Positions 1 to 13,989 of a stretch of DNA of 14,203 nucleotides are shown piece after piece. The translations under genes were made by a program, and so were the position numbers. Numbering within the stretch: the stretch's first letter is position 1; each line of letters begins with the position of its first letter. Location of the stretch: the NCBI GenBank assembly GCA_009778015.1, contig WRKS01000005.1:1-14203 (forward strand), given 5' to 3'. The notes under the pieces were generated by a model that did no database searches, was not told the DNA's origin, and worked only from the letters and a program-made list of their open reading frames with translations. Source of the DNA: Candidatus Saccharimonadota bacterium. GTDB lineage: Bacteria > Patescibacteriota > Saccharimonadia > Saccharimonadales > Saccharimonadaceae.

Positions 1-115
1 TGTATCAAACACAGCTTCATTGTTCGGGGCTGGTGTTTTTGCGTCTGGCGCTACTTCAACTGCAGGTGGAGCGAACGGTGGTGTCTCCCACCGCACCATA
101 CTATTAGGCTACTAA
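1..115 (+). CDS. C-terminal end of a surface-protein-like gene (copy 1, partial)
   Basis: This is the 3' end of a gene that begins before the window. Reading from position 2, 37 codons are open to a TAA at 113-115. The sequence is rich in Gly, Ala, Ser and Thr, contains AGVF, and ends HRTILLGY. Two other gene ends in the window (11699-11985 and 13962-14203, both minus strand) share the AG[IV]F motif and the identical last eight residues, while the sequence between is different. The composition suggests a beta-rich surface or fibre protein, but I do not recognise the family and cannot see an N-terminus. The gene converges on tsaD, whose stop codon lies only 18 bases downstream. I am confident that it is coding because of the three-way match, and not confident of the function. 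Confidence 0.7.
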   Translation, partial: VSNTASLFGAGVFASGATSTAGGANGGVSHRTILLGY

Positions 116-136
116 ATGTATGTGGGGTGAGGTTAG
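85..136 (+). repeat. Palindromic gene-end element, copy 1
   Basis: These 52 bases match positions 11676-11729 in inverted orientation, apart from a 2-base difference in a G run (4 versus 6). The inner 40 or so bases also match 13948-13989. The core at 97-122 is an imperfect palindrome with arms CATACTATTAG and CTAAATGTATG around GCTA, pairing at 9 of 11 positions. The element covers the last codons and stop of the upstream gene and continues past it. Its outer end contains the stop codon of tsaD on the other strand (133-135). Confidence 0.9.
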
Positions 137-1194
137 TTGGGCGTGACTTTTAAGTCTCTTGGGGCAGTCTTGGGTAAGCCCATAGCAAGGGCGGCGCGGG
201 CAATCATCACGGCGTTGTCGGTAGAGAGGGCGCGCTCAGGAAGCAGCAGCTTGGATGCTCCGCTATCTGCTCCGCAGGCGCCGAAGACCTCGTGGGCTTT
301 GTCGCGGAGGCGGGAGTTGGCGGCGACGCCGCCGGAGATAATGATTTGTTCGGGGCGATAAACTTTGGCGGCTTTTTCTAGGGCGTTTAAGAGGATCCGC
401 ACAGCAGATTCTTGGAAGACAAAGGCGAGTTCGTTTTTTTGCTCGTCGGCTAATTTGTCCGCCACTTCATCGCTAGACATGCGGAAGTTGCCGCCGGCCA
501 TTTCTTGGGCGCGGCGCAAGAAGGCGGTTTTAAGGCCGGAAAACGAGAACTCATAAGGATTGTCTAATTTTGGCGCTGGCAATAACTGCTCTTTGCCGGT
601 TGCCTTATAAGCGTCCGCGGCTTGGCTGATGCTCGGACCGCCCGGATAGGGGAGCCCGAGAATCTTAGCGGCTTTGTCAAAGGCTTCGCCGACGGCGTCG
701 TCGCGTGTCTCGCCCAAGATTTGATAGTTAGTAGGCGACTCTAAGAGGTAAATAGTGGAGTGGCCGCCCGAGACAACTAGGGCAAGGAGTGGAAAACGCA
801 TTTCGGCCGGCTCTACGCCGTAGATATGGGCATAAACATGGTCAACCGCGACGAGAGGCAAACCTAACACCTCGGCAAGGGTGCGAGCGGTCATAGCGCC
901 AATCATCAGACCGCCAATGAGGCCGGGACGATTAGCGACGGCGATGGCATCAATGGTTTTGTTATCGCGCAATTCTGCTAAACTCTCTTTAATACAACCC
1001 GCCTCTTTTAGGGCGAGCTTGATGGTTGGCAAGATGACGCGCAAGTGCTCGCGGGCGGCGATTTCGGGGAAGACACCGCCAAACTCCTTATGGATATCAA
1101 TTTGCGAAGCGACGATGTTGCTTAAAACGCGGCCGTCGCTAACCACCGCCGCAGCGGTCTCGTCGCAGGTGCTTTCAATCCCCAATACTTTCAC
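133..1194 (-). CDS. tsaD: tRNA N6-adenosine threonylcarbamoyltransferase TsaD
   Basis: TsaD transfers the threonylcarbamoyl group from TC-AMP to A37 of tRNAs that read ANN codons, working with TsaB and TsaE in bacteria. Visible family signatures include GIESTCDETAAA at the N-terminus, the metal-binding HVYAH (His119 and His123), VSGGHST, DDAVGEAFDKAAK with PYPGGP, FSFSGLKTA, ISGGVAANS and a C-terminal STDNAVMIA. I chose the GTG at 1194, giving 353 residues, near the family's usual 340. The frame stays open to a TTG at 1224, but those extra codons overlap the preceding gene and include the TATAAT box. There is no Shine-Dalgarno before the GTG, and TATAAT ends six bases upstream, which suggests a leaderless message. 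The stop lies inside the gene-end repeat at 85-136. Confidence 0.95.
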   Translation of the reverse strand: MKVLGIESTCDETAAAVVSDGRVLSNIVASQIDIHKEFGGVFPEIAAREHLRVILPTIKLALKEAGCIKESLAELRDNKTIDAIAVANRPGLIGGLMIGAMTARTLAEVLGLPLVAVDHVYAHIYGVEPAEMRFPLLALVVSGGHSTIYLLESPTNYQILGETRDDAVGEAFDKAAKILGLPYPGGPSISQAADAYKATGKEQLLPAPKLDNPYEFSFSGLKTAFLRRAQEMAGGNFRMSSDEVADKLADEQKNELAFVFQESAVRILLNALEKAAKVYRPEQIIISGGVAANSRLRDKAHEVFGACGADSGASKLLLPERALSTDNAVMIARAALAMGLPKTAPRDLKVTPN

Positions 1195-1200
1195 GTCTAT

Positions 1201-1209
1201 ATTATAACA
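1201..1209 (-). promoter_or_regulatory. Extended -10 promoter of tsaD, leaderless layout
   Basis: Read on the minus strand, TGT precedes TATAAT (1201-1206), a TGn extended -10. I see no good -35. Six bases separate the box from the GTG start, so transcription should begin at or next to the start codon. Confidence 0.6.
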
Positions 1210-1214
1210 TATTT

Positions 1215-1448
1215 TCAGCCCCAAGACGACTTTTTGGCGCGATCTTTATAGTCTTGGAAGCTACTGACACTCTTGACAGCCTCGCCGCGGCGCCGGTCTA
1301 AGGACTGCGGCTTGGTTTCGGTAAACTCAAATTCTGGCTCTGGGCCATTCATCTGCTTGAGTTCGTCCTCGGTTAAGAACTCCTCGTGGTCGCCATAGGA
1401 TTGCGCCACGACCTCGCCAGCGTCGTTTTTATGAATCTGCTTTTCCAT
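1215..1448 (-). CDS. Small acidic protein of unknown function, 77 residues
   Basis: I do not recognise this protein. It starts MEKQIHKNDAGEVV, is highly charged and hydrophilic, and has an acidic middle rich in Glu (residues about 20-45), a basic stretch (DRRRGEAVK) and ends KKSSWG. It has no membrane segment, signal peptide or cysteines and may be largely disordered. It lies between the tuf terminator and tsaD and has its own -10 box, so it is probably a separate unit that may read through into tsaD. Its stop (TGA, 1215-1217) is 20 bases before the tsaD start. There is no Shine-Dalgarno before the ATG; a TATAAT ends six bases upstream, the same layout as tsaD. The strong promoter box placed exactly at the start supports a real gene. 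Confidence 0.7.
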   Translation of the reverse strand: MEKQIHKNDAGEVVAQSYGDHEEFLTEDELKQMNGPEPEFEFTETKPQSLDRRRGEAVKSVSSFQDYKDRAKKSSWG

Positions 1449-1454
1449 GGCTCT

Positions 1455-1482
1455 ATTATAGCATACAGTCGGACAAGGGCAA
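1455..1482 (-). promoter_or_regulatory. Promoter of the 77-residue gene, leaderless layout
   Basis: On the minus strand a TTGCCC (1477-1482) is followed, after 16 bases, by TATAAT (1455-1460) with a TGC extended element. The ATG begins six bases after the box. Confidence 0.6.
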
Positions 1483-1484
1483 CG

Positions 1485-1510
1485 AAAAACGCGCCCGAGA
1501 GCGCGTTTTT
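1485..1510. terminator. Intrinsic terminator after tuf
   Basis: AAAAACGCGC and GCGCGTTTTT form a perfect 10-base-pair stem around a CCGAGA loop. It lies 16 bases past the tuf stop and has a T run on either strand, so it could act in both directions. It separates tuf from the next gene. Confidence 0.9.
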
Positions 1511-1525
1511 CTGTCAGCGGATTGT

Positions 1526-2713
1526 TTATTTGACAATCTTGGTGATAACACCGGCGCCAACTGTGCGGCCGCCTTCGCGGATTGCAAAGTTGTCGTTGCT
1601 GTTCATGGCGATTGGAGCAAGCAACTTAACCTTAAAGGTTACAGTGTCGCCTGGCATGACAATCTCTTTGTCTGATGGGAGCTCAACCTCACCAGTAACA
1701 TCGGTAGTGCGGAAGTAGAATTGTGGCTTGTAGCCCTTGCTAAATGGGGTGTGGCGGCCGCCTTCTTCCTTCTTCAAGATGTAAACCTCGGCCTCAAACT
1801 CGGTGTGTGGCTCAATGGTGCCGGGTTTAGCGATAACTTGACCGCGCTCAATTTGCTCGCGCTCAATACCACGAAGCAAGATGCCGGCGTTGTCGCCTGC
1901 GCGGCCTTCGTCCAAAATCTTCTTAAAGGCCTCAATACCGGTAACAACCGATTTTTGGGTTGGGCGGATACCGATAATCTCAACTTCGTCGTTAATTTTA
2001 ACGATACCTTGCTCAATACGACCGGTGGCAACGGTGCCACGGCCCTTGATAGAAAAGACGTCCTCAATTGGCATCAAGAATGGCTTGTCAACCTCGCGCT
2101 TTGGCTCCTCAACGTAGCTGTCTAGAGCAGCGACCAATTCCATGATTGCGTCCTCGGCTGCAGCGTCGCCTTCAAGCGCTTTGGCAGCAGAGCCCTTGAT
2201 GATTGGGGCGTTTTCGCCATCGTAACCGTTCTTGGTTAGTAGTTCGCGGATGTCCATCTCAACAAGCTCAACCAACTCTGGGTCAGCGAGGTCCATTTTA
2301 TTCAAGAAAACAACGATTTTTGGAACGTTAACTTGGCGCGCCAAGAGAACGTGCTCGCGGGTCTGCGGCAACGGACCGTCGTTGGCCGCAACGACCAAGA
2401 TAGCGCCGTCAATCTGCGCCGCACCGGTAATCATGTTCTTGACGTAGTCGGCGTGGCCAGGCATGTCCACGTGCGCGTAGTGTCGGTTTGCGCTCTCATA
2501 CTCTTGGTGCGAGGTCGCGATAGTGATACCACGAGCCCTTTCTTCTGGGGCGTTGTCAATCGCCGCGTAGTCAACCGCTTTGTTTACTGCACCTGGTAGC
2601 TTCTTGGCTAGCACGTGAGTAATAGCTGCTGTAGTGGTGGTTTTACCGTGGTCAACGTGACCCATGGTACCAACGTTAACATGAGGCTTGCTCCTGTCAA
2701 AATTTTCTGCCAT
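1526..2713 (-). CDS. tuf: Translation elongation factor Tu
   Basis: EF-Tu is the GTPase that brings aminoacyl-tRNA to the ribosome. At 395 residues it has normal length. The GTPase motifs are clear: G1 GHVDHGKT at 18-25, RGITI at 61-65 in switch I, DMPGH at 83-87, NKMD at 138-141 and GSAAKAL for G5. Domains 2 and 3 follow, ending [20 protein letters not shown]. In the G3 motif the usual DCPGH cysteine (Cys81 in E. coli) is replaced by methionine. The ATG has a good Shine-Dalgarno (AAGGAG, then GTAAAAA as spacer), unlike its leaderless neighbours. The gene is monocistronic, with its own promoter and a strong terminator. No str-operon partners (rpsL, rpsG, fusA) are adjacent. Confidence 0.98.
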
Positions 2714-2763
2714 TTTTTACTCCTTTTTGTCGGGCACTAATAATAACCAGCCCAATTTACCAT

Positions 2764-2792
2764 ATTGTAAAGCATAACACCATAAAAAGCAA
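2764..2792 (-). promoter_or_regulatory. Promoter of tuf
   Basis: On the minus strand TTGCTT (2787-2792) is separated by 17 bases from TACAAT (2764-2769). About 50 bases of leader follow before the ATG. Confidence 0.7.
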
Positions 2793-2824
2793 GTGTTTTA
2801 TGCGATTTCACACGCAAAAAACGC

Positions 2825-4270
2825 CTAAATTGTGCGGATCTGGATCGTGTCTGTGCCACCGACGACGCCCTGCTGGCGGCCGGACAAGACCACGACTACG
2901 GCGTCTTCGTCCCCAACTCCTAGTTTTCTCTCGGCGTGGAGGCGCTCGGCGACTAATAAACCGTAATTGTGCTCAAGTTCGGCGACATAACTATCAACGC
3001 CGTAGCACATAACAAGTTGGTTGGCGATATGCGGGTCGCTGGTGACGCTGACGATGCGGATGCTTGGGCGGTTGGCGCTGGCAAGCCAGGTAGTAAAGCC
3101 GGTTTTGGTCTCGGTGACGATAGCGTCGGCATCAATGCTTTCGGCGAGCTTAACACCTTGGCGGCAAACTCGCTCAACCGGCAGCTCGCTCTCGGGCTTG
3201 AGATATTCTAGTTCGTTGTTCTCCTGCGTATACTCAATAACTTCGCGCAAGGCGTTAATCGCCTCAAGCGGGAATTTGCCGGCGGCAGTTTCTTCAGACA
3301 ACATAATCGCGTCGGCGCCCATAATCACGGCGCTTGCCACGTTGTCGGCCTCGGCGCGAGTGGGAATTGGGCTGTCATACATGGTGCCCATGGTCTGGGT
3401 CGCGACAATTACTTGGGTGCCGTATTTGCGGCAGAAGTGGACCAGTTTACGCTGGATGGTCGGGACGGCCTGCATGCCGACCTCGTAGGCCATGTCGCCG
3501 CGCGCCACCATCACCACATCGGCCTCGCGGGCAATCGCGTCCATCGCCGCGTCGCTGGCGACGGCTTGTTTGGTCTCAATCTTGGCGATAATCTTGATAG
3601 AATCAGGGTAGCCGGCCTCTTTGAGCAGGCGGCGGCCCTCAACGATGTTGTCGGCGTCTTGGATAAACGAGAGCGCGACAAAATCAAAGTCTTTGTCGGC
3701 GCCAAAACGCATATCTTCTAGGTCCTTCTCGGGGAATACATCGTCGCCGAAGTCGGTGTCAGGGAGGTTAATGCCTTTTTTGCGTTTGACTTCGCCGTCG
3801 TTTTCTACACGGACCTTAATCGCGGTGTCGCTAAGAACCTCGGTAACAGTAGTTTTGACCTTGCCGTCGTAGATCCAGGCGATTTCGCCCGGTTTGACCT
3901 TTGGGGCTAGGTTGTATTGGACGGGCAGGATGTGCGAGCCGTCGTGTTCGGCGTCGCGGAGAGTGTAGTCCAGGACGAGCTCGTCGCCGACCTTGACAAA
4001 TAGGCTGTCGTCTTTGATGTCGCCGAGGCGGATTTTGGGCCCCTGTAAGTCTTGGACAATCGCCACGCGGCGGCCGAGCCGTTCGGCGGCCATGCGAATG
4101 TCTTTAATTTGCTGCTCCTTTTCAGGGTAGGAGCCGTGCGAGAAGTTGAGTCGGCAAACATCGGCGCCAGCGGCTATTACTTTTTCAATCTCTTTGTCAC
4201 CCTCGGTCTCTGACCAAGTAGATGGCCCGATGGTGGCCATTATCTTTGTTCTTTTAAAAAATTTACTCAT
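2825..4270 (-). CDS. pyk: Pyruvate kinase
   Basis: Pyruvate kinase converts phosphoenolpyruvate and ADP to pyruvate and ATP, the last step of glycolysis and a major source of ATP in a fermentative reduced genome. The 481-residue protein has the barrel-domain motifs RTKIMATIGP, CRLNFSHG (Arg40, Asn42, Ser44, His45), QDLQGPKIRLG, IAKIE (Lys230, Glu232), MVARGDMAYEVG (253-265) and TRAEADNVASAV, followed by the C-terminal domain from about residue 360. Two conserved spots differ from the common form: ARGDMAYE replaces ARGDLGVE, and MLSEETAAGK replaces MLSGETAAGK. The ATG has no Shine-Dalgarno and a TAATAT box with a TG element lies seven bases upstream, so it may be leaderless. It sits 88 bases after radA and 33 bases before the tuf -35 element. 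Confidence 0.96.
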   Translation of the reverse strand: MSKFFKRTKIMATIGPSTWSETEGDKEIEKVIAAGADVCRLNFSHGSYPEKEQQIKDIRMAAERLGRRVAIVQDLQGPKIRLGDIKDDSLFVKVGDELVLDYTLRDAEHDGSHILPVQYNLAPKVKPGEIAWIYDGKVKTTVTEVLSDTAIKVRVENDGEVKRKKGINLPDTDFGDDVFPEKDLEDMRFGADKDFDFVALSFIQDADNIVEGRRLLKEAGYPDSIKIIAKIETKQAVASDAAMDAIAREADVVMVARGDMAYEVGMQAVPTIQRKLVHFCRKYGTQVIVATQTMGTMYDSPIPTRAEADNVASAVIMGADAIMLSEETAAGKFPLEAINALREVIEYTQENNELEYLKPESELPVERVCRQGVKLAESIDADAIVTETKTGFTTWLASANRPSIRIVSVTSDPHIANQLVMCYGVDSYVAELEHNYGLLVAERLHAERKLGVGDEDAVVVVLSGRQQGVVGGTDTIQIRTI

Positions 4271-4277
4271 ATAACCT

Positions 4278-4286
4278 ATATTACCA
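4278..4286 (-). promoter_or_regulatory. Possible extended -10 of pyk
   Basis: On the minus strand TGG then TAATAT (4278-4283) lies seven bases before the pyk ATG. It matches the -10 consensus at 4 of 6 positions, so it is weaker evidence than at tsaD. Confidence 0.4.
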
Positions 4287-4358
4287 CAAAAATAACAGAT
4301 TGCAAAGCAAGCCGCCGGCCCGCGCGCTTATCTCTAGCCGCATAGTGCGACGACGAGG

Positions 4359-5729
4359 TTAACGCAGATAAACATTGAGGACGGCGGTCAGGTCGCGGGC
4401 TGGCTTGATAAAGGGATTCTTGATGGTGCGGGGGGCGATGGCGGCGGTAAAGCCGAGTTTCTTGGCCTCGCCGATGCGCTTTTCGGCGGCGTGGACAGAG
4501 CGGATCTCGCCGCCTAGGCCAACCTCGCCAAAGACGACTAGGTCGTCTGATAATTTGCGGCCGGCGGCGGCGCTGGCGATAGCCATACAGACCGCGAGAT
4601 CGGCCGCGGCGTCCGAGACACGGATGCCGCCAACCACGTTGATAAAAATATCTTTGTCGGACAGCATCAATTTGGTGCGCTGCTCTAAAACAGCAATTAG
4701 CAGGTTAAGGCGGTTCAAGTCAAAGCCCGAGGCGGTCCGTTTAGGGTAGCCAAAAGTGGTGCGATTGACCAGGGCCTGAATTTCTACCAAGAGCGGCCGC
4801 ACACCGTCAATAGCCGAAAAAATAATAGAGCCGTCCACATTTTGCCGTTCGGCGAGTAATGCCGCAGAGGGGTTAACAACTTCCTCTAACCCGCGCTCGT
4901 TCATCTCAAAAATAGCGAGTTCCGAGGTGGCGCCAAAGCGGTTCTTGGCGGCGCGGATGGTCTTGAAGCCGCCGTAGCGGTCGCCTTCAAAGTTAAGGAC
5001 GACATCAACCATATGCTCTAGGGTCTTAGGCCCGGCGAGAGCGCCGTCTTTGGTAACATGGCCGACTAGCATCATGGCGGTGTCGGTGGCTTTGGCGGCG
5101 CGAATCAAGATGTTGCCAGAATTAGAGATTTGCGAAACGCCACCGGGGGCGCTGGCAATTTCGGCAACCGCAAGAGTTTGGATTGAGTCAATGATGACAA
5201 ACTTGTATTTGCCGTTTAAGATAGTTTGGGCGATGTCGTTAGTAGAGTTGCTGCTCGCAAAATCCAAAGCCAGAGCGTTACGCTTGGTTATGCGGCTAGC
5301 CAAGCGAATGGCACGAGCGCGGACTTGCGGTGCCGACTCCTCGCCGGAGACGTAGAGGACAGGGACGGTCTTAGAAATCTCGTTGGCGATTTGCAAGAGC
5401 AGAGTGGATTTGCCGATGCCGGGCTGACCGGTAAGGAGAGTAACGCTGCCGGGCAACACACCGCCGCCCAGCACCAAATCTAGGTCGGGGAAGCCGCTGT
5501 GCAAGCGCTCGTTTTCCTTTTCGTCGGCCGACTCAGTAGCATAAACATTTTCTACGGTTAGGATGCTGCCAGTTTTTGACGCCTTAGTGAGGGTGTTTTT
5601 GACCTCGGGGGCGTTGGCCTGCTCCAAGAGAGTTTCCCATTCGCCACAACTGGTGCACTGCCCCATCCACTTGGGGTAGCTGGCCCCGCAATTAGAGCAG
5701 ACAAAAAGCCGGCGTTGTCTGGCGCTCAT
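4359..5729 (-). CDS. radA: DNA repair protein RadA
   Basis: RadA is a RecA-related ATPase that helps process branched recombination intermediates by driving branch migration. The 456-residue protein shows the full family architecture. An N-terminal zinc finger has cysteines at 11, 14, 25 and 28. The RecA-like core has Walker A GQPGIGKST (101-109), a Walker B strand KFVIIDS, and the RadA-specific KNRFG at 262-266. A Lon-protease-like C-terminal domain follows from about residue 290. The ATG overlaps the thyA stop by one base (TAATG), so the two are translationally coupled. It is the last gene of the overlapping six-gene set. Confidence 0.97.
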   Translation of the reverse strand: MSARQRRLFVCSNCGASYPKWMGQCTSCGEWETLLEQANAPEVKNTLTKASKTGSILTVENVYATESADEKENERLHSGFPDLDLVLGGGVLPGSVTLLTGQPGIGKSTLLLQIANEISKTVPVLYVSGEESAPQVRARAIRLASRITKRNALALDFASSNSTNDIAQTILNGKYKFVIIDSIQTLAVAEIASAPGGVSQISNSGNILIRAAKATDTAMMLVGHVTKDGALAGPKTLEHMVDVVLNFEGDRYGGFKTIRAAKNRFGATSELAIFEMNERGLEEVVNPSAALLAERQNVDGSIIFSAIDGVRPLLVEIQALVNRTTFGYPKRTASGFDLNRLNLLIAVLEQRTKLMLSDKDIFINVVGGIRVSDAAADLAVCMAIASAAAGRKLSDDLVVFGEVGLGGEIRSVHAAEKRIGEAKKLGFTAAIAPRTIKNPFIKPARDLTAVLNVYLR

Positions 5730-7627: not shown

Positions 7628-7628
7628 A

Positions 7629-8198
7629 CTACTCCTTAAGCGGGTCTTTGCGATACTGCATAAAGTCTTTCAGAACATCGGACAGGCCGCCGCCGATGGC
7701 GCGGGCGAGAATTTTAGAGGTAGAGATGTTGGTGCTTTGGCGGTCCACGACAACCGTCTTGCCGCCGGATTTTTCAACGATGCGGTTTTCTTTGGAGTTC
7801 TGCCAGTCGGCGGCCCAATCCTCTTTGACCGTGAAATAGACATCCGGTTTGAGCAGCCCGAGGCTGGGAGCGCAAGATGGCTCAGGCACGATGGTAACGA
7901 AGTCAACACAGCGGAGAGCTGAGACGACTTCGGCGCGGACCTTTTCGCCCAAAATCGGCTTGTTGGGGCCTTTGGCTTTTGCGATAGCGCGGTCGGAAAC
8001 CACGCCGACGACTAGGATGTCGCCGAGCTTGCTGCCTTCTTCTAGGTAGCGGGTTTGGCCGACATGCATAAGATCCCACGAACCAGCGGTAAAGACGATT
8101 TTTTTACCGTTTTCGCGTAGCTTCTCGCCCAACTCCAGCAGATCGCTCTGTGAGATCAAACGCTTCTTGAAACTGCTAGGCATTGCTGCAGCGCTCAT
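7629..8198 (-). CDS. Cytidylyltransferase-like nucleotidyltransferase (RfaE/HldE-C type)
   Basis: The fold is that of the HxGH nucleotidyltransferases, which join CTP or ATP to a phosphorylated sugar or alcohol. The protein (189 residues) has KIVFTAGSWDLMHVG at 33-47, VVGVVSDR, a KP(I/L)LGEKVRAE segment and ISTSKI at 158-163, matching the ISTT/S end motif of heptose-1-phosphate adenylyltransferases and glycerol-3-phosphate cytidylyltransferases. The HxGH motif reads HVGQ, with Gln replacing the second histidine that normally contacts the nucleotide phosphates. Its start overlaps the upstream kinase stop (ATGA), with GGAGGAATT before it. Kinase and nucleotidyltransferase side by side suggest a pathway that phosphorylates and then activates a small molecule for an envelope polymer; that is an inference. 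Confidence 0.85.
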   Translation of the reverse strand: MSAAAMPSSFKKRLISQSDLLELGEKLRENGKKIVFTAGSWDLMHVGQTRYLEEGSKLGDILVVGVVSDRAIAKAKGPNKPILGEKVRAEVVSALRCVDFVTIVPEPSCAPSLGLLKPDVYFTVKEDWAADWQNSKENRIVEKSGGKTVVVDRQSTNISTSKILARAIGGGLSDVLKDFMQYRKDPLKE

Positions 8199-9247
8199 AA
8201 TTCCTCCAATATGTTTCTAACTAGGAGTATATCACGAGTGCGGCAAAAGTGATAATTATTTTCTAGATCCTCGTAAGGATTGTGGCTCAAGAACTTGTAG
8301 AAATCAAAGAGGAGAAAGAAATTTGTCATATTATAAAATATTTTGGGTGGTATGAGAAGTTGACTTTTGCCGTATTTTATGTAGCCGCTATGGAGGAAGT
8401 ATTTGGCGATTTTAGGCTCGGACTTAGGGCAGTCAACCAGTAAAAAAGCGTAGGTGCGGGCCAGGTCAATCAGAGGCGAGCCGGCGGCAGTTTTTTCAAA
8501 GTCAATAATGCCGGAAATGGTCGGGTTAAGCAGGCTCTTGGGGGTGGCCCAGAGGATGTTGCCGCGGACAAAATCTAGGTGCAAGGGCTGGCGGGCAAGG
8601 CCTTGGAGAGGTTGGGCGCCCAGAAACCGGGCAATTTTGTCGTAGTTGATGCGGGTTTTGAGGTTAAGCTTGGCGGTTAGCGCCTTTTGGACCTCGCTTT
8701 TGGCAAAATAAGCTTGCATGGTGTCGTTGTAATCGGTGAGCTCGGTTAGGGCGTCGGGCAGGGGTAGGTCGGTGTTGGCGAGCGAGGCGTGGAGCTCGGC
8801 AAGAGTCTTGCCCAGTTCTCGCAGGTGCTTGCGAGTATAGGCCTCCCAAGGGATGGTGGAGCCCTCCAGCCAGTAGTAGAGGCGGGCCAAGCGATACCCT
8901 TTGTCCGTGGCAGCCTTGAGGGTGCGCGGATCGGCAAGCAACCGGGCAGGCAAGCCGGCGGCGGCCACGATTTGGGACACCAGATCGGCGTTTTGCATGC
9001 GTTCTAGCGCTGTCGGTTCGTTTTTAAGCAACATTAGATTATACTTTTTGCCCTCGGCAAGGATGCCAAAACTATGATTGCGATAACCGTGGTTATAGGT
9101 AAAAATCTCGGGGTTCTTAAGACCAAAAGCGCGCGCCAATCTAAGGACATTAGCGTCAGAAATCGGCGGCTGCTTGACGCTGGCCAAGCTGTAACCCTCA
9201 CGCCAAAGCCCGCTCTTGCGGCGGGTAACTAGGTTTTGATCCTCCAT
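8195..9247 (-). CDS. Aminoglycoside/choline-kinase-like phosphotransferase
   Basis: The 350-residue protein has the catalytic core of the APH family of small-molecule kinases: HLDFVRGNILW at 223-233 (catalytic Asp225, metal-binding Asn230) and GIIDFEKTAAGSPLIDLA from 246, with Asp249 in the DFG-like position. The N-terminal lobe has a Lys in YNLMLLKNE. The C-terminal 90 residues are rich in Phe and Tyr and predicted helical. The family includes choline, homoserine and methylthioribose kinases as well as antibiotic kinases; with a nucleotidyltransferase next door, choline or amino-alcohol phosphorylation is more likely than resistance. It is the first gene of the six-gene overlapping set. There is no clear Shine-Dalgarno before the ATG, and AT-rich sequence with weak -10 candidates (9252-9265) lies directly upstream. 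Confidence 0.85.
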   Translation of the reverse strand: MEDQNLVTRRKSGLWREGYSLASVKQPPISDANVLRLARAFGLKNPEIFTYNHGYRNHSFGILAEGKKYNLMLLKNEPTALERMQNADLVSQIVAAAGLPARLLADPRTLKAATDKGYRLARLYYWLEGSTIPWEAYTRKHLRELGKTLAELHASLANTDLPLPDALTELTDYNDTMQAYFAKSEVQKALTAKLNLKTRINYDKIARFLGAQPLQGLARQPLHLDFVRGNILWATPKSLLNPTISGIIDFEKTAAGSPLIDLARTYAFLLVDCPKSEPKIAKYFLHSGYIKYGKSQLLIPPKIFYNMTNFFLLFDFYKFLSHNPYEDLENNYHFCRTRDILLVRNILEEL

Positions 9248-9290
9248 ATACTTTATATGTTAGCATGGTTCCTAAATTATAGAAAACGCT

Positions 9291-9321
9291 TAAGCCCCAT
9301 ACCGTGATGGCATGGGGCTTA
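9291..9321 (-). terminator. Terminator between the split helical gene and the kinase operon
   Basis: TAAGCCCCAT and ATGGGGCTTA form a perfect 10-base-pair stem with an 11-base loop. On the minus strand it is followed by AGCGTTTTCT, a modest T run. It closes the unit ending at 9383. Confidence 0.75.
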
Positions 9322-9382
9322 TGGTTAAATAGAAGGAAAGATTGTGATGACGCAGAGCCGGTGTTTCAGCACGACCACGACG

Positions 9383-9997
9383 CTAATCTTGGACAACTAC
9401 CAACTTGCCGCCGACCTTTTTCACGATCGGGGCTTTGATAATCTTGCCGGGGGTAGGCGGGGGGTTGTAGTAAGCTGGCGCAGGTGTTTGGGCGGAACCG
9501 GGAGTCTGGTAAATGGTGGGCTGCGGTGGATCCCCGAAGGTTCGCGACGTGGGCGGCATTGGTGCCTGGGTTGTCGCTGTAAATGACATCTGTCGGTCAG
9601 CCTGAGCAAGCACTTCATCCAATGAGGCGCTGTTTAATAGGTCCTGCAAGTTATCCTTCTTGGTGAAGAAGCCGCGCTTTTTGGTTGTCGCGCCGTTGGG
9701 CTCGGACATCTTGATGGCTTGCTGCAGGTTGATTTGCGCGTCTTGGACCGCGGTTTTTGCGGTGCCTATGTGACTTCGGGCGCTGGCAACTTCAAACTTC
9801 CTCTCCCTGGCTGACTCTTGGTTACGCTCAATGACGAGTTCAAGGGCTGATACAATAACATCGTCGCCAGAGGTGTCCTCGGCCAGAGCGATCCTGCTCT
9901 GGGCCAGGTCATAGACAGCCTCCCAATAACGGATCCGCAGATTGACCAGCTGGAGCTCCGCGCGGCGGCAGTCCAAGACTTTTTTTAGCCAGGTCAA
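9383..9997 (-). CDS. C-terminal part of a frameshifted helical protein
   Basis: This open frame of 204 codons overlaps the end of the preceding one by 89 bases in another frame. It is probably the second part of the same gene. It begins at a TTG without a Shine-Dalgarno. From residue 7 it is a long charged helix (VLDCRRAELQLVNLRIRYWEAVYDL and on to about residue 105), which continues the heptad-like character of the upstream frame. The last 70 residues are Pro/Thr/Gln-rich with PPTP and PPQP, ending in a short basic and hydrophobic piece (KKVGGKLVVVQD). I do not recognise the family. If the two frames are joined at the seven-A run, the product is about 504 residues: N-terminal globular domain, coiled coil, proline-rich tail. 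Confidence 0.7.
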   Translation of the reverse strand: MTWLKKVLDCRRAELQLVNLRIRYWEAVYDLAQSRIALAEDTSGDDVIVSALELVIERNQESARERKFEVASARSHIGTAKTAVQDAQINLQQAIKMSEPNGATTKKRGFFTKKDNLQDLLNSASLDEVLAQADRQMSFTATTQAPMPPTSRTFGDPPQPTIYQTPGSAQTPAPAYYNPPPTPGKIIKAPIVKKVGGKLVVVQD

Positions 9998-10898
9998 ATG
10001 CCAGCCTGGTGGTCAGGTCGCCTGAGTCTCGGTCGTAACGGGCCTGGTAGTGTTCAAAACGATCCGCGGCTGCTTCGGCTTCCTCTTTAAGTCTTTCGGC
10101 TTGCTCGTCCAGCTCAGTGAATTGGGCGTTGCAATCCTGCAAAATGGGGTCGCATTCGCTGTAAACAGCCTGCTTGGCGGCCTCATTGTACTCATGAACC
10201 ATGTCGCCGAATTTTGCCTCCCAGTCTTGGTTGGCATCTTGCAGTTGCCTGATGAGGGCGAGGTTGTCGTTGTTCGCTTGTTCTAATGCTTGGTATTCTG
10301 GGGTGTCTTTGACGTCCGGAACTTGGCGATTGGGGTCGCGATAGTGCTTTAGGTGGTTCATACCAATATGGCCGTAAATCTTGGGGTCCATACTGGTGCT
10401 CCCGGTCAAGCCGCTACTCCGATGCGCCAGCTCGTAAGCGGCGGGGTGGAGCAGAAGAGCCATTTGCATACTGACTTTATCGGTGTTGTAGGCGCCATCC
10501 TCGCCCAGAAAAGCATTGGAGATGGAGCGAAACAGCACTTCGCTTAGGCCAGCCAGCTCGTCGGCGGACATATCGCGCAGGAACAGCTGCATCGCCGCAT
10601 AGTTGACGCGATCAAAGCCTTCGGGGTTAACGCTTGCGAACTCGGGCATTTCGCGCCCGATTAAGAGAGTCGTCAGAGTGGCGAGGTTCTCTTTGGTGAT
10701 GTCGCGCGAGGTCATGGTCCTTCGCATCTGCGCCAAGACACGACCACTGTTGTCGTGGACGCGAACGCTTGGCAGCAACTCGTGGACGGCGTCGCAATAC
10801 TCTTTGGCCAGGGTGGCCGTGTGCGATTCAGCCCCCGCGAGGGCTGCGATTTTACCGATGAGCTCGTTGATAAACTGCTCATTGTGAATAGTTCTCAT
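9909..10898 (-). CDS. N-terminal part of an unknown helical protein, frameshifted near its end
   Basis: The ATG has GGAGG nine bases upstream and a strong promoter, so this end is real. Of 329 residues the first 306 look native: a helical domain to about residue 195 (with EFASVNPEGFDRVNYAAMQLF and MQMALLLHPAAYELAH), then a long coiled coil rich in Glu, Gln and Ala (about 205-306). The last 23 residues are Gly/Pro-rich and unlike a helix; the other frame reads as continued helix instead, so they probably represent out-of-frame translation. The junction is a run of seven A's (9980-9986 on the minus strand). No catalytic or membrane motif is visible; a structural or cytoskeletal-type role is possible but unproven. 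It diverges from khpA. Confidence 0.8.
   Translation of the reverse strand: MRTIHNEQFINELIGKIAALAGAESHTATLAKEYCDAVHELLPSVRVHDNSGRVLAQMRRTMTSRDITKENLATLTTLLIGREMPEFASVNPEGFDRVNYAAMQLFLRDMSADELAGLSEVLFRSISNAFLGEDGAYNTDKVSMQMALLLHPAAYELAHRSSGLTGSTSMDPKIYGHIGMNHLKHYRDPNRQVPDVKDTPEYQALEQANNDNLALIRQLQDANQDWEAKFGDMVHEYNEAAKQAVYSECDPILQDCNAQFTELDEQAERLKEEAEAAADRFEHYQARYDRDSGDLTTRLAFDLAKKSLGLPPRGAPAGQSADPLLGGCL
9980..9986 (-). other. Seven-A run at the frameshift
   Basis: Upstream frame reads GCT AAA AAA AGT; the downstream frame reads CTA AAA AAA GTC. Removing one A (or a +1 slip) joins residue 306 of the first frame to residue 7 of the second, giving continuous helix. Confidence 0.75.
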
Positions 10899-10940
10899 AA
10901 ACTTATCCTCCTATTTGTTAAAGTTTTCATACCTGTGCTT

Positions 10941-10978
10941 GGGACCTTAAGCGGCCCGGGGGCAGGTGCATAGGTCCC
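10941..10978 (-). promoter_or_regulatory. Structured leader of the split helical gene
   Basis: GGGACCT (10941-10947) and AGGTCCC (10972-10978) can form a 7-base-pair stem in the roughly 85-base leader. A competing pairing, ACCTG (10931-10935) with CAGGT (10963-10967), crosses it, so the two are either alternatives or a pseudoknot. The function is unknown. Confidence 0.45.
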
Positions 10979-10988
10979 CTTTACCCTC

Positions 10989-11017
10989 ATTATATCACAC
11001 TTGTGCTTAAAAGTCAA
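10989..11017 (-). promoter_or_regulatory. Promoter of the split helical gene
   Basis: TTGACT (11012-11017), 17 bases, TATAAT (10989-10994), with a TGA extended element, on the minus strand. The spacer resembles those of the promoters at 11972 and 12933. Confidence 0.88.
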
Positions 11018-11049
11018 TACTAAGACGGGTAAGCGGCAGAAAATCAAGG

Positions 11050-11079
11050 TTGGCATTTTTGCAGAGAGTGTGATATAAT
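11050..11079 (+). promoter_or_regulatory. Promoter of khpA
   Basis: TTGGCA (11050-11055), 18 bases, TATAAT (11074-11079) with a TGA extended element. The leader is about 20 bases and carries AGGAGG before the ATG. It is divergent from the promoter at 10989-11017. Confidence 0.82.
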
Positions 11080-11101
11080 AGGGGTACAAAAGAGGAGGAT
11101 T

Positions 11102-11557
11102 ATGGCATTGACCATTGACCAGCAGTTCATAGAGTACATCGTAAAGACACTAGTAAACAAACCAGAGGCCGTGAAGATTGAGCGCACCACCGACGATCGT
11201 GGTGTGTTGTTGTCGCTATCGGTGGACCCAGAGGATTTGGGCCGTGTAATTGGCCGCGAGGGCCGCACTGCGCAAGCTTTGCGCTCACTACTACGGGCAC
11301 TAGGCATGAAGAACGACGCCCGCTACAACCTAAAAATTGTCAGCGACGATGAGGGCGGCGAGCGCGAGCCAAGCCGAGAGCGAGCCCCACGCGGAGAGGA
11401 GGCAGCAGCACCAGAGGCAACCGAAACTACGGAAACGCCTGTGGAGGAAGTGGCCGAGGTTGAGGTAGAAGAGCCTGTGGAAAACTCAACTGAAAACTCT
11501 GAATTAGCAGAGAAAACCCGCCAAGAACTTGCAGACCTTGACGACCTTGATATATAA
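11102..11557 (+). CDS. khpA: KH-domain RNA-binding protein (KhpA-like) with acidic tail
   Basis: The first 80 residues are a single type II KH domain of the KhpA/YlqC family, small RNA-binding proteins that in Gram-positives pair with KhpB and bind many mRNAs and small RNAs. The motif is DLGRVIGREGRTAQALRSLL, with the RNA-binding loop GREG at 51-54. A 70-residue tail follows (from about 82), dominated by Glu, with Thr, Pro and Ala, and ending DLDDLDI. KhpA proteins are normally only about 75-85 residues, so the acidic tail is an addition. AGGAGG lies four bases before the ATG. The gene is alone on the plus strand with its own promoter and terminator, not in the usual rpsP-rimM-trmD setting. 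Family assignment is firm; the tail's role is unknown. Confidence 0.92.
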   Translation: MALTIDQQFIEYIVKTLVNKPEAVKIERTTDDRGVLLSLSVDPEDLGRVIGREGRTAQALRSLLRALGMKNDARYNLKIVSDDEGGEREPSRERAPRGEEAAAPEATETTETPVEEVAEVEVEEPVENSTENSELAEKTRQELADLDDLDI

Positions 11558-11579
11558 TAATATCAGGTTGCGAGAGAGA

Positions 11580-11597
11580 AGTAGCCTAATGTAAGGT
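11580..11597 (+). repeat. Degenerate partial copy of the gene-end element
   Basis: AGTAGCCTAAT (11580-11590) matches the centre of the repeat exactly, followed by GTAAGGT, similar to GTATGGT in the full copies after a one-base gap. It has the same orientation as the copies at 11676 and 13948. The left arm is absent. Confidence 0.4.
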
Positions 11598-11614
11598 TGA
11601 GAGCTTTATATTCG

Positions 11615-11644
11615 CAAAGAGAGCCATTGTTGTGGCTCTCTTTG
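11615..11644 (+). terminator. Terminator of khpA
   Basis: CAAAGAGAGCCA and TGGCTCTCTTTG form a perfect 12-base-pair stem around TTGTTG. No long T run follows, but the stem's own distal strand supplies TTT. Confidence 0.8.
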
Positions 11645-11675
11645 GTTGCTATGTAGGCGACTTAACACAAGATAC

Positions 11676-11729
11676 CTAACCTCACCCCCCACATACATTT
11701 AGTAGCCTAATAGTATGGTGCGGTGGGAG
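11676..11729 (-). repeat. Palindromic gene-end element, copy 2
   Basis: Its palindromic core lies at 11692-11717. The 42 bases at 11685-11726 are identical to 13948-13989 (copy 3, direct orientation). The whole matches 85-136 in inverted orientation. The stop codon of the flanking gene end is at 11699-11701. Confidence 0.92.
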
Positions 11730-11985
11730 GTCCGCCAATTGGGGTTGCCGCTCGTATAACTGTAGGTAAATATCCCAGCACCGACTTCCATCTCAGTAGT
11801 GCCGCCAAGAATCGCCCACGGGCCGCCCGTAGAGACAGTAATTGCTCGTCCGCTATTCCATGCGCCTTGCTGCATGGCAGTGCTAGTGATTTCCGTATTT
11901 GACGCTCCAAAGAATAAGGCGTTGTTGGCCAGTGCACCATTTATTATGGCGTTGATATTATTCACGCCGAGTTGACTTTTTACCA
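11699..11985 (-). pseudogene. Truncated surface-protein gene end (copy 2)
   Basis: About 95 codons in frame with the HRTILLGY end resemble the gene end at 13962-14203: NALFFG against NTYFFG, then a Gly-Trp/Ala-Trp-Asn step, LGG, AGIF and the identical last eight residues. The open frame extends further (to 12073), but beyond 11985 it runs through the plus-strand promoter at 11972-12000 and its leader, so that part is unlikely to be native. There is no Shine-Dalgarno before the ATG at 11985 and no upstream N-terminal region. It is best read as a 5'-truncated or silent copy of a larger gene, cut off where the accessory module's first promoter begins. Confidence 0.65.
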
Positions 11986-12000
11986 TAAGTATGATATAAT
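11972..12000 (+). promoter_or_regulatory. Module promoter A
   Basis: TTGACT (11972-11977), 17 bases, TATAAT (11995-12000) with a TGA extended element. The last 13 bases of spacer (CATAAGTATGA) match promoter B at 12933 almost exactly. Confidence 0.9.
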
Positions 12001-12010
12001 AAGGCGGGTA

Positions 12011-12133
12011 GAGATTACCTACACCCTTTACGCTGATTATAGCGTGGAACCTTAATAGCTTACTTTCGGCCACAGAGCAGAGCGGTAGATTTACCCACCA
12101 CTCCGCCCTGTGGCTGAGTTATGCACCCACAGG
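12011..12133 (+). promoter_or_regulatory. Structured leader A with alternative hairpins
   Basis: After promoter A comes GAGATTAC (12011-12018), a small hairpin ACGC/GCGT (12030-12045), and GAACCTTAATA (12047-12057). The same order occurs in leader B. Further on, GCCACAG (12069-12075) can pair with CTGTGGC (12108-12114), while the overlapping CCTGTGG (12107-12113) can instead pair with CCACAGG (12127-12133), which is followed by AATAATTTTATT. The two pairings exclude each other, as in an attenuator or riboregulator. Confidence 0.55.
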
Positions 12134-12165
12134 AATAATTTTATTCTTGAAAGGGGCTAACGAAT

Positions 12166-12837
12166 ATGCCAAAACCATTGAAGGGCAATTACACGCCTAC
12201 ACAGAAGCTGTACTATGCGTTGTTTGACAAACTGCCAAAGCGTGATATCACAGAGGATGAAATGCCCGAATTGTTCCGTGTGCTGGAAACCCTGACAGAC
12301 CAAGAAGCGGCAATTATAAAGATGCATTTTGGCCTTGGATGCGAAGCAATGACGTTAAGGGCCATAGGTAGAAATCTTGAGGTACACGACAGCCAAATTG
12401 GGCGAATTGAAATCAGAGCAATTCGCAAACTCAGGCATCCAAGCCGCTCCAGACGCATACAGCCTTTGTTTTATACATATGCAGAGCTACAGGCGCAAAT
12501 TGCGAAATGTAATGAACAAGTTTCCTGTGTAAATGATCATTTGCAATCTGTTATTGCAGAGAACGCAAGTTTACACAAGAAACTGTGGGTACTGCGGTTG
12601 CCCCTCTCGGCTATGGACTTAGAGATAAAGGATATGAATTTTTCAGACTCTAAATACAATTCCCTGAGACGCGCCGGACTTGACACCGCTGGTGATATTG
12701 CATTATTATACCAAAAGGCAGGGCTTGGCGGGCTCTTAAAAATCCGCCAGATAGGCCCAAAATCCGCCCAAGCGATACTGGCAAAACTGCAAGAGCTAGG
12801 TGTGATGCCGTCTCAAGCAGAAGAAACACAGCAATAA
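12166..12837 (+). CDS. Sigma-70 region 4-like / RNA polymerase alpha-CTD-like fusion protein
   Basis: The 223-residue protein joins two domains that normally belong to different RNA polymerase subunits. Residues about 38-92 resemble sigma-70 region 4, the helix-turn-helix that reads the -35 box: LTDQEAAIIKMHFGLG, then LRAIGRNLEV, then IGRIEIRAIRKLRHPSR. Residues about 105-143 look like a coiled coil. Residues 145-213 resemble the alpha C-terminal domain, with LRRAGLDTAGDI and LLKIRQIGPKSAQAILAKLQELGV, which binds UP-element DNA and activators. There is no region 2, so it cannot be a complete sigma factor; a transcription regulator or anti-initiation factor is more plausible. GAAAGGGG lies nine bases before the ATG. 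It has its own promoter, a long leader and a terminator. Confidence 0.85.
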   Translation: MPKPLKGNYTPTQKLYYALFDKLPKRDITEDEMPELFRVLETLTDQEAAIIKMHFGLGCEAMTLRAIGRNLEVHDSQIGRIEIRAIRKLRHPSRSRRIQPLFYTYAELQAQIAKCNEQVSCVNDHLQSVIAENASLHKKLWVLRLPLSAMDLEIKDMNFSDSKYNSLRRAGLDTAGDIALLYQKAGLGGLLKIRQIGPKSAQAILAKLQELGVMPSQAEETQQ

Positions 12838-12848
12838 GTAAGCAATTG

Positions 12849-12878
12849 ACCGCCTTGGCGTAAGCTAGGGCGGTTTTT
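12849..12878 (+). terminator. Terminator of the sigma-4/alpha-CTD gene
   Basis: ACCGCCTTGGC and GCTAGGGCGGT form an 11-base-pair stem (two G-T pairs) with a GTAA loop, followed by TTTTT. Confidence 0.93.
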
Positions 12879-12932
12879 CAGTTTTGCGGCAATCTCAATC
12901 GTAGCTGTGATTAACATTAAATGACGTAATCA

Positions 12933-12961
12933 TTGACTTTTAAGCATAAGTATGATATAAT
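12933..12961 (+). promoter_or_regulatory. Module promoter B
   Basis: TTGACT (12933-12938), 17 bases, TATAAT (12956-12961) with a TGA extended element. It is nearly the same as promoter A throughout. Confidence 0.9.
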
Positions 12962-12973
12962 GGAGGCAATCTG

Positions 12974-13082
12974 GAGATTACTACTAAGCAGTAACTCTTC
13001 GGAGTGAAGCTTAATAATATAAATGCTAAATACCACGTTCTACCCTAAGAGGGGCAAAATTAATTGCCCCGTAACTCGGGGC
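12974..13082 (+). promoter_or_regulatory. Structured leader B with alternative hairpins
   Basis: GAGATTAC (12974-12981), hairpin ACTC-TTCG-GAGT (12994-13005) and GAAGCTTAATA (13006-13016) repeat the order seen in leader A, with different but still complementary stem bases. Then GGGGCAA (13051-13057) can pair with TTGCCCC (13064-13070), or the overlapping GCCCCG (13066-13071) can pair with CGGGGC (13077-13082), next to the ribosome binding site GGAAAGAGG. Confidence 0.55.
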
Positions 13083-13097
13083 GGAAAGAGGTATGTT

Positions 13098-13793
13098 ATG
13101 GGAAACGATAAGAAGACTTGGGGCGAAAAACTCCGCAAACTAAAACTATTTGCAATTGTCGCGGTCGTGATTACGGCGCTCATCCTTATCTTTGATGTAG
13201 GAGAGCTACCTACGCGTACAGCACTCGTAACGGACGTACAATCAGTTACTGTGCTACATCTTCTGGGTGGAGCAACACCCTCATATGATGTTTACTTAAA
13301 GGGAGATGGTTGGTTTTCCGGCAAAAGGACTATTCCTCAGCAAGGACACTCCGAAGTAAGTGGATGGGCTGGATCGTATTTGATAGTGCAAGAGCGGGGT
13401 ATAGCTGCTTTTGGCAGACACCTACTTGTTTTTGACGGCGCATACACTATTAGCGGAGAAAGAGCCACGGCGTTGCTGCCACCATCAGACAGTGCGCCGA
13501 AAGGCGAAGTTATCTGGCTTACAGAAACCGGCAGCGAAATTATGCGGAACAGTCAGACGATTGCTTCCGGTCAAGGAATCAATATGTGGACTATTGACCT
13601 ACGGGAACAACAAGGATTGAATCTCGTATCTTGGGCAACGTCCACCGGCGGTTCCGGTTCACTCAAGGGTATGGATGGCGATCCGTTTTTTATTCCTGCC
13701 GACTATCTCAGTGAGGGTGTAAAGATTTTCATTTACTACGAAACCGACCCGGATTGGATAGACCTGCCACCGACACAAAACCATGACGGATGA
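13098..13793 (+). CDS. Single-pass membrane protein of unknown function
   Basis: I do not recognise this 231-residue protein. The N-terminus is basic (MGNDKKTWGEKLRKLKL), followed by one membrane segment at about 17-35 (FAIVAVVITALILIF), with no visible cleavage site, so it is probably anchored with the C-terminus outside. The outer part is about 195 residues, rich in Gly, Thr and Ser with regular hydrophobic strands (YDVYLKGDGW, HLLVFDGAY, VKIFIYYET), which suggests a beta domain. It has no cysteine. I chose the ATG at 13098 for its GGAAAGAGG site; the frame is open from an ATG at 13023, but that would place the leader hairpins inside the gene. It has its own promoter, leader and terminator. 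Confidence 0.75.
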   Translation: MGNDKKTWGEKLRKLKLFAIVAVVITALILIFDVGELPTRTALVTDVQSVTVLHLLGGATPSYDVYLKGDGWFSGKRTIPQQGHSEVSGWAGSYLIVQERGIAAFGRHLLVFDGAYTISGERATALLPPSDSAPKGEVIWLTETGSEIMRNSQTIASGQGINMWTIDLREQQGLNLVSWATSTGGSGSLKGMDGDPFFIPADYLSEGVKIFIYYETDPDWIDLPPTQNHDG

Positions 13794-13832
13794 CGGCTTT
13801 TAGCGCAATAATTAGCATTTCAAACTTGATTA

Positions 13833-13856
13833 AGTCGGACTTCGGTCCGGCTTTTT
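13833..13856 (+). terminator. Terminator of the membrane protein gene
   Basis: AGTCGGAC and GTCCGGCT form an 8-base-pair stem (one G-T) with a TTCG loop, followed by TTTTT. Confidence 0.92.
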
Positions 13857-13947
13857 CTATTCAAATCTGCGGGGCAGCAGAAAGTCAACGCTGAGGTTAG
13901 TGCAAGCAAACAGGCTATGACTGCACTGGGAGAGGCTGTCTCGTTAA

Positions 13948-13989
13948 CCCCCCACATACATTTAGTAGCCTAATAGTATGGTGCGGTGG
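13948..13989 (-). repeat. Palindromic gene-end element, copy 3
   Basis: 42 bases identical to 11685-11726 and in the same orientation; the palindromic core is at 13955-13980. The six-C run agrees with copy 2, whereas copy 1 has four. Outside the 42 bases the flanks differ on both sides. Confidence 0.92.

What the first reader, a model, noticed from the sequence alone, without database searches (positions are those of the whole stretch)
85..13989. A palindromic DNA element in three copies, fixed across a stop codon
Seen: 42-54 bases are shared at 85-136 (one orientation) and at 11676-11729 and 13948-13989 (opposite). The core is an 11-4-11 imperfect palindrome, with arms CATACATTTAG and CTAATAGTATG around TAGC and 9 of 11 positions paired. 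All codon third positions of the HRTILLGY ends are identical, and identity runs 15 or more bases past the stop, while the protein sequence just upstream differs. That argues for conservation of DNA, not only of a protein tail. Inference: it is a recombination or attachment site (arm lengths resemble tyrosine-recombinase sites) that preserves the host gene's last codons, as tRNA-end attachment sites do.
Basis: partly seen in the sequence, partly recalled or inferred. Interest (0 to 1): 0.85.

Follow-up and report, generated by a model that had tools for sequence, protein, structure and literature searches.

The report
Silent cassette library for surface protein
The repeated DNA is the fixed tail of about sixty start-less gene pieces scattered through a small bacterial genome, which look like a store of spare binding ends for one surface protein that could be swapped in to change what the cell recognises or displays.

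Summary
The repeat is real. The window's three copies belong to 59 exact copies of the 30-base core (plus 2 with 1-2 mismatches) in a 542-kb draft genome; two of its three closest named tsaD relatives are Candidatus Saccharibacteria. Copies are 3' ends of start-less coding cassettes of about 91 codons (QLGV...SHRTILLGY-stop). In the 50 full cassettes both ends are fixed as DNA while the interior evolves as protein (pS 0.75, pN 0.46). One full-length gene with an ATG start (contig C25) runs in frame into the same 5' block, then its contig ends. Another genus, G112, has a second library with different fixed ends and a complete expression gene carrying both. The domain is homologous to DGR variable regions of relatives. 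Best reading: silent donor cassettes feeding an expression gene by recombination at the fixed ends, comparable to vls or msp2/p44, apparently descended from DGR targets. Switching itself is inferred. The attachment-site reading fails in detail, but its core (DNA conserved for recombination, alternative flanks) is partly supported.

The parts
1..115 (+). 3' part of a cassette (cut by the contig start), reading ...GVSHRTILLGY-stop
   Evidence: bases 1-127 identical to the cassette end at C11:2790-3071 and its 3' block
85..136 (+). 3' block (fixed end over the stop, with imperfect palindrome) and its outer flank, which runs into the stop of tsaD
11699..11974 (-). complete cassette, 91 codons plus stop, QLGV...SHRTILLGY, no start codon of its own in the conserved unit apart from the conserved GTG of QLGV
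11963..11974 (-). 5' block CAACTCGGCGTG
11676..11729 (-). 3' block with a long outer flank (GGTGAGGTTAGGTATCTTGTGTTAA, reaching to about 11662), shared with C74 and C55
13962..14203 (-). third cassette, 5' part cut by the contig end
13948..13989 (-). 3' block of the third cassette
133..1224 (-). tsaD neighbour; in relatives L167 and L168 its stop lies 2 bases from, or overlaps, the end of rpoD; here a cassette stands at this junction

Best explanation
The repeat is the 3' boundary of silent variable-domain cassettes. The genome keeps about 60 dispersed start-less copies (full or partial) of the C-terminal variable domain of a long surface-type protein, plus a gene that has a start codon, an N-terminal hydrophobic segment and the same 5' junction. 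A cassette becomes expressed when its interior is copied (segmental gene conversion) into the expression gene, with the short fixed blocks at both ends as the homology or recognition sequence. Shown: the copies, the fixed ends, selection on the interior as protein, the lack of starts, the full-length gene with nearly the same 5' junction, a second library with a complete expression gene, and cassettes beside two different flanks. Inferred: that copying into the expression gene occurs, its direction, the enzymes, and the purpose (varying a binding or displayed surface).
For: 59 exact core copies, control 0; 63 profile matches, of which 62 are full or partial cassettes and one a distant gene on C13; same-genus G001 and G003 (98 and 97% complete) have 0, G002 6. 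Of 59 exact copies, 50 reach QLGV with no stop, 7 are cut by a contig or fetch edge (one of these, on C20, is full), 2 are one pair truncated at its shared centre. Ends: the HRTILLGY codons differ in 0 of 50; CAACTCGGCGTG is exact in 47 of 50; interior pS 0.747, pN 0.463; conserved glycines use all four codons. Fifteen head-to-head pairs have their 5' blocks 2-3 bp apart, leaving no room for a promoter or start between them. Gene on C25: ATG, 728 codons to the contig end...VYSLTQLGANDRPSIANGALA; of 28 unpaired 5' blocks, 7 share 8-10 bases of its upstream coding sequence beyond the block, 9 share none. G112: 22 copies of the 3' block in 13 sampled stretches, 21 with the 5' block (the other is at a contig start), 21 of 21 open; its gene L161 (810-codon frame, 801 from the first ATG) ends in a segment with both blocks (5' one mismatch) and then VVVIRP-stop. 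Same cassette in two contexts: C5/C11, C9/C2, C49/C74, C27/C79 (127, 121, 116 and 61 identical bases, then different flanks or a contig end; only about 17 of the 61 are cassette-specific) and C9/C39 (133 bases, 2 mismatches).
Against: No switching was seen: no reads or second isolate were available. C25 ends 50 bases after the start of the 5' block, so its 3' block is not seen, and its junction reads CAACTCGGCGCT where the library reads CAACTCGGCGTG; its present segment (NDRPSIANGALA) equals none of the 50. Every case of one cassette in two contexts has a copy at a contig end, so recent duplication, strain mixture or misassembly is possible. Blocks of 12-30 bp are short for RecA-type recombination (general knowledge). 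The draft is 72% complete in 87 contigs, and I fetched only about a third of it.
Confidence: 0.66

Rival explanations
1. Ectopic DGR products: a DGR reverse transcriptase copies the template or variable region and its cDNA enters intergenic sites; the cassettes are such copies, either by-products or extra templates, not a recall library.
For: The domain is the DGR variable-region domain of relatives (hhalign probability 98.3). An RT fragment with IGNLTSQ lies at C38:3-449; its nearest relative among those compared (62%) sits beside a repeat pair with all 21 mismatches at A. In G112 the A-rich copy L130 differs from the others at A 0.55 against 0.23-0.30 at C, G, T (codon positions 1+2). Cassette outer ends have graded lengths. 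In G002 one dispersed copy differs from three others mostly at A: 15 of 42, 24 of 45 and 27 of 44 mismatches.
Against: In G000 the A bias is weak (0.56 against 0.39 for the best template-like copy; median ratio 1.17) and synonymous sites are saturated, so the diversity was not written recently from one template; the 50 full cassettes are open; no burst of near-identical copies among the fetched contigs; no RT match in G112 (64% complete).
Confidence: 0.2
2. Site-specific mobile cassettes moved by a tyrosine recombinase at the palindrome (integron-, shufflon- or Xer-type).
For: Palindrome with 11-base arms; inverted pairs; a Xer-like gene starts 44 bp from one cassette on C3 and passes the cut-off of a model named site-specific tyrosine recombinase/integron integrase; alternative outer flanks.
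Against: The 5' boundary has no such palindrome unless two cassettes are joined; G112's 3' block has none; mixed orientations and no single array; that protein is the only PF00589 match and is far below the specific integron-integrase and invertase cut-offs. Serine recombinases were not searched for.
Confidence: 0.07
3. A MITE- or REP-like repeat that happens to contain coding sequence.
For: High copy number, intergenic sites, inverted-repeat-like outer flanks.
Against: Apart from the few shared copies, interior stretches in the blast table reach only about 82% identity, yet the frames are open and under protein selection; repeats that spread recently look alike inside.
Confidence: 0.04
4. Ordinary paralogous small genes starting at the conserved GTG.
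For: GTG of QLGV is kept in 48 of 50.
Against: Two copies have GTA and the C25 gene GCT; in fifteen head-to-head pairs only 2-3 bp separate the 5' blocks; DNA identity of the 3' end is unexplained.
Confidence: 0.03

Closest known systems
msp2/p44 functional pseudogenes of Anaplasma (PMC2789410, passages read)
   [quoted passage not shown] small genome
   Different: Unrelated protein family (pfam01617); those donors cluster mainly in one run near the expression site; no DGR link mentioned in the passages; transfer is documented there, not here
vls system of Lyme Borrelia (PMC11499132, passages and abstract start; PMC3585125, abstract start)
   Same: Promoterless cassettes kept open; a separate expression gene; inverted repeats at the junction; 17-bp repeats at cassette ends in some strains
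   Different: A contiguous plasmid array (15 cassettes in B31) with about 90% identity; here dispersed on 23 contigs, mixed orientation, highly divergent interiors
Diversity-generating retroelements (PMC3240598 and PMC8144416, passages read)
   Same: Same C-terminal variable domain and long target proteins; relatives G006, G017, G079 carry classical pairs with 16/16, 23/24 and 18/19 mismatches at template A
   Different: Here dozens of old, start-less copies with saturated synonymous sites and fixed ends instead of one template and few targets
Shufflons and integron cassettes (recalled, not read)
   Same: Alternative 3' coding segments, inverted pairs
   Different: No single array, no matching specific recombinase found, fixed block at both ends

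Membership tests
Silent-cassette / expression-site variation (vls, msp2 kind) | Many donors without start or promoter, holding only the variable segment | tested here: met
   promoters were not scanned for, their absence is argued from the 2-3 bp spacing of 15 pairs
Silent-cassette / expression-site variation (vls, msp2 kind) | Full-length expression gene with the same segment and the same ends | tested here: inconclusive
   G000: 5' junction seen with a GTG to GCT difference, 3' end off the contig; G112: both ends seen, 5' one mismatch
Silent-cassette / expression-site variation (vls, msp2 kind) | Donor reading frames maintained | tested here: met
   of 59 exact copies 50 are open over the full length, 7 cut by an edge, 2 broken at a shared centre; pN below pS
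Silent-cassette / expression-site variation (vls, msp2 kind) | Observed transfer of donor sequence into the expression gene | not testable with these tools
   no reads or isolates
DGR | Reverse transcriptase of the DGR kind | tested here: inconclusive
   only the C-terminal 148 codons at the start of C38; nearest relative is beside an A-biased repeat pair
DGR | Template/variable pair differing almost only at template A | tested here: not met
   weak bias among G000 cassettes; beside C38 only a 51-base repeat pair with 4 mismatches, not A-biased; parts of the genome are missing
DGR | GC-rich 7-10 bp hairpin with 4-nt GRNA loop after the variable region (PMC3240598, phage DGRs) | tested here: not met
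   11-base AT-rich stem with two mismatches, loop GCTA, overlapping the stop
Integron cassette | Integron integrase and same-orientation array | tested here: not met
   32 and 29 copies on the two strands; the C3 protein scores 136 bits against a cut-off of 265 for TIGR02249, though 233.8 against 220 for the broad NF040815
Shufflon | Compact invertible array with its DNA invertase | tested here: not met
   dispersed over 23 contigs; invertase models far below cut-off
tRNA-type attachment site | Site lies in a host gene end shared with an element's recombinase site | tested here: not met
   no tRNA in the window; the tail belongs to the cassette itself

The most novel reading that the evidence does not exclude
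A write, store and recall system: a DGR (or its remnant RT) diversifies the surface protein's tail, variants are written as cDNA-like copies with graded ends into intergenic sites all over the chromosome, and stored variants are recalled into the expression gene through the fixed end blocks. Two genera of one bacterial family would have built such archives, apparently independently, from DGR targets.
Probability: 0.2. Interest if true: 0.95.

Novelty: new variant of a known kind. Interest (0 to 1): 0.8.

Why it matters
Silent-cassette variation is known to me mainly from pathogens that face immune systems. Here about 3% of a small genome would be a donor library (62 full or partial matches of up to about 280 b in 542 kb), in a lineage whose cultivated kin grow as epibionts on Actinobacteria (abstract start of PMC10633639); that would point to variation in host attachment or phage avoidance. 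It also suggests a route from point-mutating retroelements to a heritable archive of variants and makes clear predictions for long reads. In the listings of the searches made (open-licence PMC texts only) I saw no description of such a library in Patescibacteria; one paper (PMC11809585, passage) raises antigenic variation in Patescibacterium as something that 'remains to be seen'.

Tried and rejected
Rfam and tRNA scans of the window: nothing. Pfam on the two window cassettes and eight others: nothing. PHROGs on the two window cassettes: only weak matches, E 0.016 or worse. AlphaFold models of the cassette (pLDDT 46) and of the 410-residue C-terminal domain (pLDDT 33) are of low confidence, so no fold search was made; the C-type-lectin/FGE-like fold rests on sub-threshold FGE-sulfatase matches (E 2e-4 to 2e-3) and on homology to DGR regions. 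Solved structures: one weak hit at E 0.11 to sulfatase modifying factor 2, none with the profile. The 30-mer is absent from viral contigs. The cassette alignment found nothing in GTDB contigs (which used one peptide pattern and may leave out the own genome). The idea that contig ends are constant k-mer overlaps was dropped because overlaps vary from 61 to 127 bases.

Rejected readings: host-gene attachment site, integron, shufflon, phage-type DGR hairpin, independent small genes (see membership test and rivals).
Full report
What was checked. The three window copies are real and are a small part of a family: the 30-base core occurs 59 times exactly and twice with 1-2 mismatches on 542,425 bases in 87 contigs, spread over 23 contigs; the same pattern read backwards occurs 0 times. 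The window is the whole contig C5 and has a cassette at each end and one inside.

What each copy is. Read back from the stop in the core, 50 of 59 copies give an open frame down to the peptide QLGV about 91 codons upstream; 7 are cut by a contig end or by the limits of the stretch I fetched (one, on C20, is complete); 2 are a head-to-head pair on C2 truncated at its centre. Aligned, the interiors are diverse (35-53% identity to the window's complete cassette) with conserved G, W, N and F positions. Synonymous differences are saturated (pS 0.747) and exceed nonsynonymous ones (pN 0.463), whereas the eight codons HRTILLGY show no difference in 50 sequences and the 12 bases CAACTCGGCGTG are exact in 47 of 50. 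So the DNA of both ends is held constant while the middle evolves as a protein.

Arrangement. Cassettes lie between genes: of 42 blocks examined, 38 are not overlapped by more than 60 bases by another frame of 70 codons or more; the four overlapping frames are antisense to the cassette (two of them are the partner cassette's own frame at a contig edge) (simple ORF calling, no gene finder; frames lying mostly inside a block were left out). Fifteen pairs stand head to head with their 5' blocks 2-3 bp apart, making the palindrome CACGCCGAGTTG-GC-CAACTCGGCGTG. Four 5' blocks stand alone: three at 34-bp spacing on C63 and one between ribosomal-protein genes on C57. Outside the blocks the shared flank fades gradually: 0 to 10 bases on the 5' side of 28 unpaired blocks (against C25) and 0 to 25 after the G run on the 3' side of 58 (against the longest flanks).

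The expression gene. A same-genus genome (G002) has an intact 771-codon protein whose end is homologous to the cassettes. Its N-terminal part finds, in the own genome, an ATG-started frame of 728 codons on C25 (62% identity over 490 residues) that runs into ...TACTCCCTCACCCAACTCGGCG..., that is YSLTQLG, and leaves the contig 50 bases after the start of the 5' block. Of 28 unpaired 5' blocks 7 carry 8-10 bases of this upstream coding sequence, 5 carry 3-7, 7 one base and 9 none; the 33 paired ones carry 0-2. One discrepancy must be stated: the gene reads GCT where the library reads GTG, and its present segment is none of the 50. A second, N-terminal piece of such a gene ends at the edge of C67.

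A second library. Among 394 genomes of the family, the own one included, 18 match the cassette profile (at most 13 candidates scored per genome). G112, of another genus, gave 84 first-look candidates; 13 were scored and all 13 match, mostly in short frames, so its total is not known. In 13 stretches fetched around these, the 13-mer GGTTTTCGTGGGG occurs 22 times; 21 have the 5' block (mostly TCCTCTGGGTGGTCGGGGGC, some with changes) and all 21 are open between them, with pS 0.645 and pN 0.445. Its full-length gene on C1 ends with such a segment, both blocks present, then VVVIRP-stop; three further fragments (C2, C23, C53) carry longer pieces of the same upstream gene. The blocks differ from those of G000, so the fixed-end design, not the particular sequence or palindrome, recurs. 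Other genomes with many matches (such as G014) have them mainly in long frames.

Link to DGRs. The cassette profile aligns with the C-terminal variable regions of long target proteins of relatives (hhalign 98.3%, E 1.5e-14). Relatives carry classical DGR pairs: mismatches at template A / elsewhere are 16/0 (G006), 23/1 (G017), 18/1 (G079). In G014 the bias is present but looser (A 41-56% changed, other bases about 11-33%), in G002 likewise among dispersed copies, and G002's target gene L064 aligned over only 57 bases without a clear bias. Of 20 RT loci of relatives, 9 have nearby a repeat pair with over 80% of mismatches at A (or T on the other strand). G000 has the C-terminal part of an RT at the very start of C38, 62% identical to one beside a 21-of-21 A-biased pair. 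Within G112 the A footprint is clear, within G000 weak. This fits descent of the libraries from DGR targets, with G000's library older; it does not show that the RT writes cassettes.

Alternative junctions. Four cassettes at contig ends are identical over 61-127 bases to cassettes elsewhere and then the flanks differ; a fifth pair shares 133 bases with 2 mismatches. The clearest: in named relatives L167 and L168 tsaD is followed directly by the convergent rpoD; in L169 it is not. In G000, C11 has rpoD next to cassette Y, head to head with X, whose outer side meets a DUF3800-like gene (name recalled); C5, the window, has tsaD next to an identical X end. Either X is duplicated, or the outer junction of X was exchanged, or the assembly misjoined. 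Reads are needed.

Mechanism. Most likely, segmental gene conversion into the expression gene using the end blocks. The same process in reverse, or cDNA copying, could have made the library. Purpose is inferred: the proteins are surface-type (N-terminal hydrophobic segment by eye; weak FGE-sulfatase similarity), so variable binding to host cells or escape from phages is plausible.

Taxonomy. No name is given for the own genome. The three closest tsaD relatives are two Candidatus Saccharibacteria bins and one labelled Nomurabacteria (76, 70 and 71% identity). WRLC01000002.1 has the same length (117,713) as G002:C2, so G002 is probably isolate Th196P3bin140.

Literature seen: passages of PMC8144416, PMC3240598, PMC11809585, PMC11499132 and PMC2789410; all other papers only as search listings with abstract starts.

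Noticed in passing
window 12166-12837 (+): A 223-residue protein combining sigma-70 region 4 and an RNA polymerase alpha C-terminal domain (Pfam E 1e-8 and 8e-8).
   Followed up: no
window 11970-12010 and 12930-12965: Two very similar promoter-like stretches (TTGACTTTT...CATAAGTATGATATAAT); in the first, the end of the cassette's 5' block supplies the TTG of the -35-like box (by eye).
   Followed up: no
L096 (C63) 1114-1193; L097 (C57) near 1682: Solo 5' blocks without a cassette, three at 34-bp spacing and one between ribosomal-protein genes: scars or landing sites.
   Followed up: partly
L093 (C13): A second long target-type gene whose frame stops at a TGA within the variable domain.
   Followed up: no
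L131, L138, L142 (G112): Some G112 cassettes stand tail to tail or end beside a shared palindrome ATGTTATATAACAT.
   Followed up: no
L071, L076, L080, L084 (G002): Four dispersed start-less copies with A-biased differences and homologous flanks (about 300-440 bp aligned), perhaps an early stage of a library.
   Followed up: partly
L032 (C2) 2036-3175: An IS3-type transposase gene (named by eye) between cassette blocks.
   Followed up: no
L055 (C38) 410-977: Small genes that look like a toxin-antitoxin pair just after the RT fragment (by eye).
   Followed up: no
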